This document shows, piece after piece, positions 33,128 through 44,272 of a DNA stretch of 64,000 bases. Source of the stretch: Pseudomonadota bacterium (GTDB lineage: Bacteria; Pseudomonadota; Gammaproteobacteria; Steroidobacterales; Steroidobacteraceae); NCBI GenBank assembly GCA_021792755.1, contig JAJYUA010000003.1, positions 1 to 64,000 on the forward strand. The letters are read 5' to 3'. Numbering within the stretch: position 1 is the stretch's first letter; the number at the start of each line of letters is the position of its first letter. The position numbers and the translations under genes were made by a program. The notes under the pieces are model-generated. The model was not told the origin of the DNA. It made no database searches and worked only from the letters and a program-made list of their open reading frames with translations.

Positions 33128-33141
33128 TGGCGGAGAGGGTG
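33128..33141. repeat. Attachment-site repeat, left end of the integrated element
   Basis: TGGCGGAGAGGGTG, identical to 44259-44272, which is the CCA-bearing 3' end of tRNA-Ser. The match stops abruptly on both sides. The orientation is the same, as expected for att sites made by a tyrosine integrase using a tRNA 3' end. Confidence 0.85.
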
Positions 33142-33183
33142 ACCGCCACAAATGCCGATATTCATAGGCCGGAAGCAGCGGCA

Positions 33184-33201
33184 GTGCGTATCCAGTGCGT
33201 A
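33184..33201 (+). promoter_or_regulatory. Candidate integrase arm-type sites, left
   Basis: Two direct GTGCGTA repeats (33184-33190 and 33195-33201), 11 bp apart start to start, 43 bp inside the left att repeat. The same heptamer pair with the same 11-bp spacing lies near the right end (44133-44150). Paired symmetric repeats at both ends fit integrase arm-binding sites. Confidence 0.6.
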
Positions 33202-33642
33202 ATTTCCCGTCTCACCGGCCAACCATCGAACCGGCGAGCATTACGACGGGCATCGTAGCGCGGTATTGGCCATTCCGCATGCTTGACACGCCACCGCCGT
33301 CGACGCTACGGTTTACGCAACGCCCGGTATGCTCCGGGCCGCGTCGGAGATGTGAAGCAGCCGCCGGCGCGTCGTGTGCGAAGCCTTCCATAGGGACTGA
33401 GGTACTGCAGGAGGATGGGGATCGCGCGCAGTCGTGTCCAACTCTATGAGTCTGGTGACGTGGAGTTGTGGCCGCCGACGAATCGAGGCATCCGAACACC
33501 GTTCGTGATAGGGAAATCTCATCCGGGTTGAACCAAGGGCATTGCGTCCCAGACCTCCCCGGAGTGCAGCCCAGCAGGGCGGAAAAAGCCAAACGCATCG
33601 GCCCGTTAGGACTTGCTGCAATGCGGACTCTCACCGGTCTAA

Positions 33643-33843
33643 TCGCCGTGCATGCACGGCGAAGGGCCGTATGTGTCCGCACAATCTGAATTGTCGCTGA
33701 TGATGCGGCTCGCCACGTAGGCGAGCGGCGTCGTGCGCCCGTGGGCGCAAGAAAGTAAGGCCGGTTGGGGTGAAGCAGCAACCCCGAACCGGCCTCCGCG
33801 CGCGCGCGTCGTAGCAGGTGGTCCCACCGTCGTGGGCTACGAC
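33643..33843. promoter_or_regulatory. Palindrome and hairpin cluster, candidate replication origin
   Basis: Within 200 bp: a perfect 20-bp palindrome (33643-33662); a 6-bp stem (33735-33740 / 33743-33748); a strong 14-bp hairpin with one bulge (33758-33771 / 33781-33795); and an 8-bp stem (33808-33815 / 33836-33843) enclosing a second small stem (33817-33821 / 33824-33828). It directly precedes, and partly overlaps the 5' end of, the gpA-like initiator frame. Rolling-circle nick sites are normally in such hairpins. No nick sequence can be assigned. Confidence 0.5.
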
Positions 33844-35406
33844 GACGGTCGTATCATAGCACCTTCCCAGGCGGAGCAACGCACCGCCGAGCGCGAGCCG
33901 CAAGGTCAAGGTCCGGGTGATGCAGCGGCGCATCTGCGTGAGGCGTGCTGGTCGGATGAGCGCCTCGCCCGCGTCATGGAGTGCGGAGTCACCGCATGGG
34001 GCTGGCGACATCGCGGCATGATCGAGCGGGAGATCGCCGACGAAGCCAAGCACCGGATTGCGACGTGGTGGCGGTCAGGGCGGTCCCTCTGGGCCGCGAG
34101 CTATAAGGCCAGGTATGGCGTCGTGCCCACGCAGTTGATGCAGGTAGACCGCACCGCCGCGCTGCGCGGTGAGCGGCGCAACATGCGCTGCTGCGTGCGC
34201 CGCGCCGAGGAGGCCGCCGCGCTGCTCGCCGGTCACGTTGGCAGTCGGGGACGGCAGTCGCGATATGCATCCTGCAACGCGCGGTGGCGCCGCGCCGAGC
34301 AGCTCGAGCAGCAGGCGAAGTGGATGGATGAAACGCTGGTGGTTGACACCGAAACTGGCGAGGCCATCCCGCTGGCGAAGGTGACGCGCCATCCTCGACA
34401 ACGGCGCGCCGAGCTTCACGTGGTGACCCGCGGCATGATTGACTGCGAGGTTGCGCAGGGCCGTTGGCCATACTTCATCACATTGACGTTGCCGGCGACC
34501 TGGCACCCTTCGCCGAAATTCGGCCGCGCGAAGTGGGACGGCAGCCTGCCTGTGGCTGGGCAGCGCGAGTTGCGCCGCCGTTGGGCGCTCGCCCGGGCGC
34601 GCGCCAAAAAGGCTGGCATCGGGCTCGTAGGCAGCCGGTTCGTCGAACCTCACCTCGATGGCTGCGTGCACTGGCACCAGATCATGTTCTTGGCGGACTC
34701 CGAAGTGAAGACCACCACCAACATCCTGTCCACCGTGTTCGGTGACCTCGGTCCCGCCGTGCGCGTCGAGCGTGCCCGAAGCGCCGAGGGCGCGGCGAAG
34801 TATTGCATGGCGTACTCGGCCAAGACGGCCGCCTGCGGCGACGGCCAGATCGGGCAGCACATCACGAGCGATGACCTGTCTGGCGTAGACGCGTGGCGCG
34901 CGGCGTGGGGTATCCGAGGATTCCAGCTATTTGGCATGAAAGGTCGGCTTGGCGTATGGCGGGAGTGCCGCCGACGGCTGCCCGAGGACGCCCCAGCCGA
35001 GCTCCGCGAGCTTGCGCGGCACGCACGGGCCGGCAAATTCCGGGAATTCCACGAGGCGGCCGAGCGCACTGGCGCGCGGGTATGGGCGACGGACGAGGAG
35101 CGTGAGTACCCCGAGCCTGATCCAGCCCGCCAGCAGCGGGCTGCTGCGCACGGGCAGCGCGCCACCCTGATCATCCACCGCCGTCGGACGGTCGGCATAT
35201 GGCTTGAACGGCGCGGCATCTGCGTCGCCACGCGTCAGCCCGGCCGGTGGATCCTCATCAGGGCCGAAGACTCCGCCGCCGCGTCCGCGGCGGCCTTGGC
35301 TGACTCCTGCATAACTGTAGCCACCGATTCGGGCAGTGAGAGAGCCCGGACGGGAGAAATTCCACCGGCTCAGGCCCCGCCGCGGCGTGCTGCGAGTGAG
35401 TCATAG
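33733..35406 (+). CDS. gpA-like HUH replication endonuclease
   Basis: Up to 557 residues. The middle carries the three motifs of rolling-circle initiators like phage P2 gpA: motif I FITLTLPATWH (about 248-258), the HUH motif EPHLDGCVHWHQIMF with H313 and H315, and paired tyrosines in AAKYCMAYSAKTA (Y357 and Y361). The protein would nick an origin and stay covalently attached to DNA. The start is uncertain: the GTG at 33733 lies among hairpins and the first 80 residues look non-conserved, so a start near 33976 (MECGVTAWGW) is plausible. On this element it probably drives replication of the excised circle. Confidence 0.82.
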   Translation: MRPWAQESKAGWGEAATPNRPPRARVVAGGPTVVGYDDGRIIAPSQAEQRTAEREPQGQGPGDAAAHLREACWSDERLARVMECGVTAWGWRHRGMIEREIADEAKHRIATWWRSGRSLWAASYKARYGVVPTQLMQVDRTAALRGERRNMRCCVRRAEEAAALLAGHVGSRGRQSRYASCNARWRRAEQLEQQAKWMDETLVVDTETGEAIPLAKVTRHPRQRRAELHVVTRGMIDCEVAQGRWPYFITLTLPATWHPSPKFGRAKWDGSLPVAGQRELRRRWALARARAKKAGIGLVGSRFVEPHLDGCVHWHQIMFLADSEVKTTTNILSTVFGDLGPAVRVERARSAEGAAKYCMAYSAKTAACGDGQIGQHITSDDLSGVDAWRAAWGIRGFQLFGMKGRLGVWRECRRRLPEDAPAELRELARHARAGKFREFHEAAERTGARVWATDEEREYPEPDPARQQRAAAHGQRATLIIHRRRTVGIWLERRGICVATRQPGRWILIRAEDSAAASAAALADSCITVATDSGSERARTGEIPPAQAPPRRAASES

Positions 35407-43118: not shown

Positions 43119-44128
43119 CCGCTCCACCACTGCATCATCCGCCGCCGTTCATCGAGGTATTGCGCCCTGTGGTACGCCTCACGTACCTCGTCGGTTTCGC
43201 GGTGCGCAAGCTGGCGCTCCACCGCATCCTTGCCCCACAGCTTGCTCTCGTTGAGCACGGTACTCGCGACGGCACGGAACCCGTGACCGGTCATCCTGCC
43301 CTTGTACCCGAGGCGGTAGAGAGCGAAAAGCAACGTGTTGTTCGAGATCCCGGTTTGGGGATTTTGCCGAGACGCGAGAACGTAAGGGCTTTCTTCCTCC
43401 GTCATCGCGCGCAGTTCCTCGAGCAGTCGGCGGACCTGCCGGGATAGCGGAACGACGTGAGGCAGTCGCCGCTTCATGCGCTCCTCGGGGATCACCCAGG
43501 TATCGGCATCGCGGATCTCAGACCACTGCGCCCCGATCAGTTCGCTTGTGCGCGTGAACGTATGCGCGAGCAGCAGCAATCCCAGGCGAGTCACGGGTTC
43601 CGGGTAGGTCTCGATCGCCGATAGCAGCGCCGGTAATTCACTCGGCGTGACCGCCGCCATCGGCGTCTTCTCCACCGCCGGTAGGACCCGGGAGAGTCCC
43701 GCGCCGGGATGCGATTCGATGTCCCCGTGGTCCACGGCATGATCGAGGATCGCGCGGATGCGCTGCCCGAGCCGGTGCGCGGTCTCCACCTTCCCGGCCG
43801 CCCCCACTCGGCGCACCACATCGACCAGATCCGCCCGGCGCAGTTCGTCGAGCCGCCGCGTGCCAATCACCGGCAGGACGTAATCCCGGATCGACTGCTC
43901 CACGGTGCGCTGGCTGTTCGCGTGACCCAGCTCCGGCAGATGCTGTGCCAGCCACCGCTCGGCGGCCTCGCCGAAGGTAATGGCGGTGCCGCCCCCGCGC
44001 AGTTCGGCCTCGCGCTTCGCCGCCCACCGTTCCGCGTCGCGGCGGAGCTTGAAAAGCCGGGATTCCCGCCGGCCAGCGACGAACAGGTGCGCCCGCCAGC
44101 CCTCGCCGTAATGCGTAATAGATGCCAT
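43082..44128 (-). CDS. P4-type tyrosine integrase
   Basis: 348 residues, with the N-terminal arm-binding DUF4102-like part shortened and a complete catalytic domain. The catalytic set is intact: R193 in FTRTSELIGAQW, H282-x-x-R285 in TGHGFRAVAS, H309 in QLAHRE and Y319 in EAYHR, ending MMQWWSGYLD. It recombines element and chromosome at the 3' end of tRNA-Ser. The ATG at 44128 is chosen; the TTG at 44206 is a poorer start. GTGCGTA repeats lie immediately upstream, so Int may repress its own gene. Confidence 0.93.
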   Translation of the reverse strand: MASITHYGEGWRAHLFVAGRRESRLFKLRRDAERWAAKREAELRGGGTAITFGEAAERWLAQHLPELGHANSQRTVEQSIRDYVLPVIGTRRLDELRRADLVDVVRRVGAAGKVETAHRLGQRIRAILDHAVDHGDIESHPGAGLSRVLPAVEKTPMAAVTPSELPALLSAIETYPEPVTRLGLLLLAHTFTRTSELIGAQWSEIRDADTWVIPEERMKRRLPHVVPLSRQVRRLLEELRAMTEEESPYVLASRQNPQTGISNNTLLFALYRLGYKGRMTGHGFRAVASTVLNESKLWGKDAVERQLAHRETDEVREAYHRAQYLDERRRMMQWWSGYLDDSRSKTHE

Positions 44129-44132
44129 CGCC

Positions 44133-44150
44133 GTGCGTAGCTCGTGCGTA
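44133..44150 (+). promoter_or_regulatory. Candidate integrase arm-type sites, right
   Basis: Two direct GTGCGTA repeats (44133-44139 and 44144-44150) with 11-bp spacing, between the integrase start and tRNA-Ser. A third partial copy (ATGCGTA, 44111-44117) lies in the start of the gene. They match the pair near the left end in sequence, orientation and spacing. Confidence 0.6.
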
Positions 44151-44258
44151 CTTTTTGGCCGGGAGTGGCATTTTGCACGGACAGAGCGGGATAGGCAATC
44201 GCTCAAGCCTTTGATTTGTCAGGATCTGTCAGTCGTACGTGACAGGACCGGACAGAAC

Positions 44259-44272
44259 TGGCGGAGAGGGTG
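44259..44272. repeat. Attachment-site repeat inside the 3' end of tRNA-Ser
   Basis: TGGCGGAGAGGGTG; reads as the 3' acceptor strand plus CCA of the tRNA on the minus strand. Identical to 33128-33141. The tRNA keeps its full sequence, so the element restored it on insertion. Confidence 0.85.

What the first reader, a model, noticed from the sequence alone, without database searches (positions are those of the whole stretch)
33128..44272. 11.1-kb integrative element in tRNA-Ser with two kinds of HUH nuclease
Precise 14-bp att repeats define it. It carries a relaxase for transfer and a phage-type gpA initiator for replication, but no conjugation machinery or capsid genes. This combination lies between mobilisable elements and phage satellites and may be an undescribed type.
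Basis: partly seen in the sequence, partly recalled or inferred. Interest (0 to 1): 0.78.

Follow-up and report, generated by a model that had tools for sequence, protein, structure and literature searches.

The report
Self-replicating mobilizable island in tRNA-Ser genes
This is an 11-kb piece of mobile DNA that inserts into a tRNA gene and appears able to copy itself and to be carried between cells by another element's transfer machinery; such islands are a known kind, but the copying enzyme of a phage type and the transfer enzyme of an unusual type make it a new variant, found here in one genus of uncultured bacteria.

Summary
A 14-bp repeat (33128-33141, 44259-44272) is the 3' end of tRNA-Ser(TGA). 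The window has no other exact copy; the whole 3.76-Mb genome has 7, against 0 for the reversed control. Between the repeats lie int, an AlpA-like protein, a mobC-like gene, a divergent relaxase and a Phage_GPA initiator. Ten ORFs tested gave no capsid, terminase or type IV secretion family. Two complete relatives in the same genus, 9.4 and 23.2 kb, share both ends and differ in the middle. Related integrases sit at three tRNA-Ser isoacceptor genes. In G066 the assembly forks at the tRNA 3' end into an occupied and an empty site. A palindrome upstream of the relaxase, a candidate oriT, has its 12-nt core exact in 14 of 22 relaxase loci. Both nucleases are under purifying selection. Best reading: a canonical integrative and mobilizable element with its own rolling-circle initiator. 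The review PMC5704250 already describes IMEs that pair a relaxase with a replication initiator, so this is a new variant, not a bridge to phage satellites. Side find: a 1,043-bp att-flanked vapBC-like unit without integrase, full length in three genomes.

The parts
44259..44348 (-). tRNA-Ser (anticodon TGA), integration target, left intact
   Evidence: ARAGORN; Rfam RF00005 60.9 bits
44259..44272 (+). att repeat at the integrase end (3' end of the tRNA gene)
   Evidence: exact 14-mer
33128..33141 (+). att repeat at the distal end
   Evidence: exact 14-mer; boundary of similarity in relatives
33128..33258 (.). conserved distal end arm (76-80% in four relatives in which only about 117-131 bp of this end match); probable integrase arm region
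43082..44128 (-). tyrosine integrase (ORF opens at 44206; first ATG of the conserved part at 44128)
   Evidence: PF00589 1.1e-17, PF22022 6.2e-22; phrog_1 3e-52; dN/dS 0.14 against G026
42894..43118 (+). AlpA/excisionase-like HTH protein, 74 aa (longer reading from 42750)
   Evidence: weak TIGR01764 excise E=0.03; conserved position next to int in relatives
42701..42892 (+). small conserved ORF, 63 aa, function unknown
   Evidence: found in relatives between the alpA-like gene and mobC; no NCBIfam or PADLOC hit
42300..42704 (+). mobC-like 134-aa protein, divergent from the relaxase; presumed relaxosome accessory factor (label by position only)
   Evidence: 78-92% identical in relatives; no Pfam/NCBIfam hit; dN/dS 0.20
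42111..42138 (.). perfect 28-bp palindrome in the relaxase/mobC intergenic region: candidate oriT
   Evidence: 12-nt core exact upstream of 14 of 22 relaxase genes
40434..42056 (-). relaxase, 540 aa: HUH nuclease N-terminus (H114-x-D-E, H131-A-H133) and LPD7 C-terminal part
   Evidence: PF18821 8.6e-10, weak PF03432; invariant residues; dN/dS 0.26-0.36
39795..40145 (-). cargo ORF, 116 aa, phrog_26231 (unknown)
   Evidence: E=8e-5
39095..39580 (-). cargo ORF, 161 aa, no family
38576..39073 (-). cargo: NHL-repeat protein fragment
   Evidence: PF01436 1.3e-14
37278..38117 (+). cargo: 279-aa protein with C-terminal zinc-ribbon-like end; homologue on the gpA contig of G036
   Evidence: phrog_8436 2.9e-16; 80% identity in L031; dN/dS 0.27
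35566..36621 (-). broken duplicate of the relaxase C-terminal half (35566-36204) joined to transposase-like sequence
   Evidence: D1 96% repeat; LPD7 5e-11, HTH_Tnp_1 only 0.043
33733..35406 (+). gpA-type rolling-circle initiator, 557 aa, HUH (H313-W-H315) and Y357-x3-Y361
   Evidence: PF05840 88.2 bits; phrog_91 6e-41; residues invariant in 11 sequences, 9 of them from viral contigs; dN/dS 0.25-0.40
32681..33127 (.). outside the att: remnant of a DUF4143 ATPase gene, foreign DNA at the distal flank
   Evidence: 97.8% to G071:C40 across the att; intact gene there hits AAA_14/DUF4143

Best explanation
An integrative and mobilizable element (IME) of a genus-wide family. Int, with the AlpA-like protein as excision helper, recombines the two 14-bp repeats and releases a circle, leaving an empty tRNA-Ser. 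GpA nicks the circle at its own origin and copies it by rolling circle, so that it is not lost while out of the chromosome. The relaxase, with the mobC-like factor, nicks a separate site (the palindrome at 42111-42138) and pilots one strand through the type IV secretion channel of a helper conjugative element. In the recipient Int integrates it at one of three tRNA-Ser genes that share the same 3' end. Shown: boundaries, gene content, conserved catalytic residues, purifying selection, conserved cis palindrome, occupied and empty site in one assembly, several tRNA-Ser targets. Inferred: excision by this Int, separate roles of the two nucleases, the helper, the transfer itself.
For: att repeat exact and rare. 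Two complete relatives bounded by the same repeats, 9,415 and 23,191 bp, with int-alpA-mobC-rlx at one end and gpA at the other. int relatives at tRNA-Ser TGA, CGA and GGA. G066: contig C69 ends in 127 nt that also begin both C35 (element) and C32 (tal side), i.e. occupied and empty sites. Palindrome upstream of the relaxase: 12-nt core exact in 14 of 22 loci, with changes in both arms in G000:C48, G023:C67 and G018:C57. HUH residues invariant in both proteins. dN/dS 0.25-0.40 for gpA, 0.26-0.36 for the relaxase. Coupling proteins over 300 bits in 10 of 58 genus genomes. Precedent: IMEs with relaxase plus replication initiator (PMC5704250, passages).
Against: The window's own genome has no PF02534 coupling protein, so no helper is at hand there. 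G000:C18 has gpA and att but no relaxase hit, and G006:C35 has int and relaxase but no gpA in its genome, so the two modules separate. The 23-kb relative holds three further recombinase genes and transposases and may itself be composite. No circle (attP) sequence was looked for in reads, which are not held. Relaxase nuclease scores are below Pfam cut-offs and its model failed (pLDDT 43.9). 4 of 8 distant relaxases show no palindrome. The G066 fork may be strain mixture, not excision.
Confidence: 0.75

Rival explanations
1. Chance composite: two neighbouring islands at one hotspot (an int-relaxase island and a gpA island) fused by deletion, so the dual-HUH set is an accident of this locus.
For: Duplicated relaxase C-terminal half (35566-36204) beside gpA with transposase-like sequence; G000:C18 carries gpA without a relaxase hit; several loci hold two att repeats close together.
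Against: The same order between exact att repeats in G026:C53 and G003:C71, each with one relaxase; the gpA C-terminus with a relaxase also on G066:C35 and G020:C123. The window copy is mosaic, but the arrangement recurs.
Confidence: 0.12
2. Phage satellite or decayed P2-like prophage: gpA serves replication for packaging in a helper's capsids.
For: GPA relatives are found in P2-like and PM2-like phages (308 phage records hit; the 20 listed are 31-33% identical); int plus AlpA-like genes are also common in satellites (recalled).
Against: No capsid, terminase or size-determination family in 10 ORFs tested; relaxase with a conserved oriT-like site; no relaxase relative in viral contigs; gpA hits in viral contigs are only 24-31% identical.
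Confidence: 0.08
3. GpA, not the MobA/Mob_Pre-like protein, is the transfer relaxase, or both nick one origin redundantly.
For: A PF05840-domain protein is listed as an IME relaxase in S. suis (PMC12479173, passages); Rep-like relaxases are common in streptococcal IMEs (PMC5704250, passages).
Against: The palindrome sits 70-79 nt upstream of the relaxase in 14 of 22 loci, also in G006, whose genome has no gpA hit.
Confidence: 0.1
4. Dead remnant: the element no longer moves.
For: Broken relaxase duplicate, NHL fragment, foreign flank remnant; no coupling protein in the genome.
Against: int, mobC-like, relaxase and gpA are all open, and comparisons with relatives show purifying selection; the att repeats are identical.
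Confidence: 0.15

Closest known systems
Canonical IMEs with a replication initiator, e.g. IMESag-rpsI (MobV relaxase plus Rep_Trans)
   Same: integrase, own relaxase, no T4SS, separate rolling-circle initiator (PMC5704250, passages)
   Different: Firmicutes; initiator of another family; target rpsI (by its name), not tRNA-Ser; the relaxase here is below the Mob_Pre cut-off
SGI1-type islands
   Same: helper-dependent, replicates after excision (titles and abstract starts in listings)
   Different: Rep_3-type theta initiator (PMC5704250, passage) and mobilization proteins MpsA/MpsB (PMC9299015, abstract start); far larger (recalled)
PF05840-domain IME of Streptococcus suis
   Same: an IME that carries a Phage_GPA-family protein (PMC12479173, passages)
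   Different: there the GPA protein is named as the relaxase; here a separate relaxase is present; integrates in guaA
P2 gpA / PM2 P12 replication initiators
   Same: HUH with YxxxY, PF05840
   Different: among the listed phage hits at best 33% identity over 42-45% of the protein; no virion genes among the ORFs tested
Small plasmid Mob proteins of Helicobacter, Riemerella and Flavobacterium (pFB1)
   Same: H-x-x-R ... H-x-DEG ... N-x-H-x-H residues shared in the two aligned; 24-34% identity
   Different: plasmid-borne, shorter; all 18 plasmid records typed non-mobilizable by MOB-suite
CIMEs (cis-mobilizable elements) and tandem accretion
   Same: att-flanked pieces without integrase beside a tRNA target (PMC5704250, passages)
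   Different: the 1,043-bp vapBC-like unit keeps one exact length at different tRNA-Ser genes in different genomes, which suggests it moves as a unit

Membership tests
Integrative and mobilizable element (canonical) | site-specific integrase and flanking att repeats at a defined target | tested here: met
Integrative and mobilizable element (canonical) | encodes its own relaxase | tested here: met
   invariant HUH residues and conserved upstream palindrome; Pfam scores are sub-threshold for the nuclease domain
Integrative and mobilizable element (canonical) | lacks mating-pair formation and coupling genes | tested here: met
   10 ORFs, Pfam and PHROGs; no PF02534 in the genome
Integrative and mobilizable element (canonical) | excises to a circle | tested here: inconclusive
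   occupied and empty site in G066; no circle junction seen
Integrative and mobilizable element (canonical) | transfers with a helper | not testable with these tools
   needs mating experiment
Phage satellite | genes to redirect, remodel or make capsids, or a terminase/packaging gene | tested here: not met
   none in 10 ORFs
Phage satellite | packaging site and transduction by a helper phage | not testable with these tools
   needs experiment
Phage_GPA (PF05840) rolling-circle initiators | profile over curated cut-off, HUH and paired tyrosines | tested here: met
   88.2 bits against 31.4; H313, H315, Y357, Y361 invariant in 11 of 11
MOBV (Mob_Pre, PF01076) relaxases | Pfam profile over cut-off | tested here: not met
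   window protein has no PF01076 hit; 5 of 13 family members hit it, best 4.4e-5; that one (L194) scores 23.8 bits against 25.5, and four others scored singly do not hit
MOBV (Mob_Pre, PF01076) relaxases | HN-R motif I and HxDE...HxH motif III (motif recalled) | tested here: met
   H23, R26, H114, D116, E117, H131, H133 invariant in 13 of 13 (N24 nearly so) and in two plasmid homologues
MOBV (Mob_Pre, PF01076) relaxases | relaxase fold | tested here: inconclusive
   AlphaFold model pLDDT 43.9; no relaxase among PDB profile hits

The most novel reading that the evidence does not exclude
One integrase and one 14-bp tRNA-Ser att system run a two-tier economy in this genus: autonomous islands that keep two HUH enzymes for separate jobs, a new relaxase family with its own palindromic oriT for transfer and a phage-type gpA for replicating the circle, and integrase-less att-vapBC-att cassettes of exactly 1,043 bp that the islands' integrase moves in trans among tRNA-Ser genes of different species, much as integrons move cassettes.
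Probability: 0.3. Interest if true: 0.62.

Novelty: new variant of a known kind. Interest (0 to 1): 0.45.

Why it matters
It documents a canonical relaxase-bearing IME family in uncultured Proteobacteria, a group in which the 2017 review (PMC5704250, passage) says none had been described. The nuclease domain of its mobilization protein is below the curated Pfam cut-offs and has no NCBIfam hit, so relaxase-based surveys may overlook such islands; the nearest plasmid carriers are typed non-mobilizable. It also gives a natural case, with complete relatives and gpA-less or relaxase-less variants, to test whether an island's transfer nuclease and copy nuclease have separate tasks.

Tried and rejected
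Structure of the relaxase N-terminal domain: 9 close sequences, pLDDT 43.9; no fold search was run on it. PDB profile searches gave no relaxase and no gpA homologue. NCBIfam and PADLOC gave nothing for the relaxase, gpA or the mobC-like protein. The relaxase was not found in viral contigs, nor in the class sample beyond one weak hit (2 of 369 genomes, one of them the window's own). In the order sample 15 of 296 genomes hit, 12 of them in this genus and 3 weak. I considered that the 94% identical stretch 35179-35322 in gpA of G026 marks the replication origin; G066:C35 shows 94% too, but four other loci show 77% and two 88-90% over part of it, so recombination is as likely, and I make no origin claim. 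I considered that 33128 might be a chance repeat; rejected. I considered filing the relaxase as MOBV; left open, as the profile cut-off is not met. An empty site for the window's own species was not found; its distal flank is foreign DNA. Of 22 relaxase loci scored for the palindrome, 8 are distant; 4 of those show no palindrome, and one of the 14 exact loci (G003:C38) has a broken relaxase.
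Full report
What was checked. The 14-bp repeat TGGCGGAGAGGGTG occurs exactly at 33128-33141 and 44259-44272 and nowhere else in the window without mismatch. tRNA-Ser(TGA) lies at 44259-44348 on the minus strand, and the repeat is its 3' end. The whole genome (3.76 Mb, 57 contigs) has 7 exact copies; the reversed control has none. Six of the seven lie at an end or target of related islands (C34 two, C29 two, C37, C18), and one (C57) has no tRNA found beside it. The unit from repeat to repeat is 11,131 bp.

Gene content. Pfam and PHROGs were run on ten ORFs. Clear: tyrosine integrase (43082-44128), Phage_GPA protein (33733-35406, 88.2 bits against a cut-off of 31.4), LPD7 domains in two ORFs. 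Weak: relaxase domain (PF03432, E 0.029 for the ORF, 0.0057 for the N-terminal 230 aa), excisionase-like HTH (E 0.03). No capsid, terminase or secretion family appeared. The relaxase reads from 42056 to 40434. Aligned with 12 relatives down to 38% identity, H23, R26, H114, D116, E117, H131 and H133 are invariant, and the same residues recur in Mob proteins of a Helicobacter and a Flavobacterium plasmid. In gpA, H313, H315, Y357 and Y361 are invariant in 11 sequences, 9 of them from viral contigs. Non-synonymous change is held down in gpA (dN/dS 0.25, 0.27, 0.40 in three comparisons), relaxase (0.26, 0.28, 0.36), int (0.14) and the mobC-like gene (0.20), so both nucleases have been kept working.

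Relatives. gpA relatives occur in 8 of 60 genomes by single-sequence search, the window's own included and all in its genus, and in 12 of 58 genus genomes by profile, own included, one of them weak. Relaxase-profile hits occur in 23 of 58, many of them only to the LPD7 part. Two complete islands are bounded by the same repeats: G026:C53, 9,415 bp, and G003:C71, 23,191 bp. Both match the window at the distal end with gpA and over 3.6-3.8 kb at the integrase end (int, alpA-like, 63-aa ORF, mobC-like, relaxase), and differ in between. Cargo differs: an ankyrin-like protein and one without a PADLOC match in G026; transposases, three further recombinases and ATPases in G003, which may therefore be composite itself. 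Exceptions: G000:C18 has gpA and the distal repeat, with alpA and int parts, but no relaxase hit; G006:C35 has int, mobC-like and relaxase, but its genome has no gpA hit. So the modules can part.

Targets and empty site. Integrase relatives lie beside tRNA-Ser with anticodons TGA, CGA and GGA. In the window's genome the three tRNA-Ser genes with the exact repeat each have one (in C37 only its first 202 residues match). In G066 the contig with serS and tRNA-Ser ends in 127 nt that are the first 127 nt both of the island contig C35 and of the contig C32 that leads to tal. That is an assembly fork at the tRNA 3' end: occupied and empty versions coexist, by excision or by strain mixture.

Flank. 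The DNA left of 33128 is not the old chromosome. From 32681 to the att it matches G071:C40 with 97.8% identity in one 2,448-bp block that crosses the att; there it is the end of an intact DUF4143 ATPase gene, here only a tail. Accretion beside a shared att is described for IMEs (PMC5704250, passages). Why flank and island match as one block in two species is not explained.

Candidate oriT. Between the divergent relaxase and mobC-like genes lies a perfect 28-bp palindrome, 42111-42138. Its 12-nt core is exact within 400 nt upstream of 14 of 22 relaxase genes, 70-79 nt from the start. G000:C48, G023:C67 and G018:C57 carry near-palindromes with a TTAGTGCGCA centre whose two arms both differ from the window's; G070:C125 has a similar one; four distant loci show none. 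In the window the 16-nt pattern matches at this place only, without mismatch, on both strands; with 3 mismatches allowed, 14 of 100 shuffles give two matches or more, so the conservation across genomes, not the count, is the evidence.

Helper. PF02534 coupling proteins: none in the window's genome; 41 of 58 genus genomes have a hit, and 10 of these have one over 300 bits. The best hits of the other 31 are 38-72 bits and may be other ATPases (inference).

Literature. [quoted passage not shown] PMC12479173 (two passages) lists an S. [quoted passage not shown] PMC3218068 (one passage) used PF05840 as a search profile for actinobacterial ICEs. PMC5714925 (passages) places PF05840 among viral HUH families. 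PMC11389934 (passages) notes genomes with hitchers but no helper. I found no paper that describes this pairing of a GPA initiator with a separate relaxase; the searches were made, open-licence papers only, and most hits were seen as listings only.

Side find. A unit of exactly 1,043 bp between two att repeats, with an antitoxin-like and a PIN-domain gene and no integrase, is present full length in 3 of 58 genus genomes (G070, G026, G006), pairwise 96-98% identical. It lies beside tRNA-Ser(GGA) in G070 and tRNA-Ser(TGA) in G006, and beside an island end in G026. The outer repeat of the G006 copy has one mismatch.

Verdict. A real, conserved family of integrative mobilizable islands with an own phage-type initiator and a divergent relaxase. 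New variant of a known kind. The satellite link is not supported.

Noticed in passing
G006:C34 190659-191700 (L111 6659-7701), G070:C49 54602-55644 (L246 1501-2543), G026:C30 8930-9972 (L039): A unit of exactly 1,043 bp between two att repeats, 96-98% identical in three genomes, with an antitoxin/PIN-toxin pair (vapBC-like) and no integrase, beside tRNA-Ser(TGA) in G006, tRNA-Ser(GGA) in G070 and an island end in G026. It looks like a cassette moved in trans.
   Followed up: partly
32681-33127: Tail of a DUF4143 ATPase gene outside the distal att; G071:C40 holds the intact gene beside the same att, 97.8% identical across the junction.
   Followed up: partly
35566-36621: Second relaxase C-terminal half (96% over 300 bp to 40730-41029) joined to transposase-like sequence; perhaps a trace of an earlier tandem and deletion.
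   Followed up: partly
G000:C18 1-13787 (L005): Another gpA island in the same genome without relaxase hit; its gpA C-terminus lies about 4 kb away from the rest, apparently split by an insertion.
   Followed up: no
G000:C29 54692 and 54849: Two att repeats 157 bp apart between tRNA-Ser(CGA) and an integrase of the same family.
   Followed up: no
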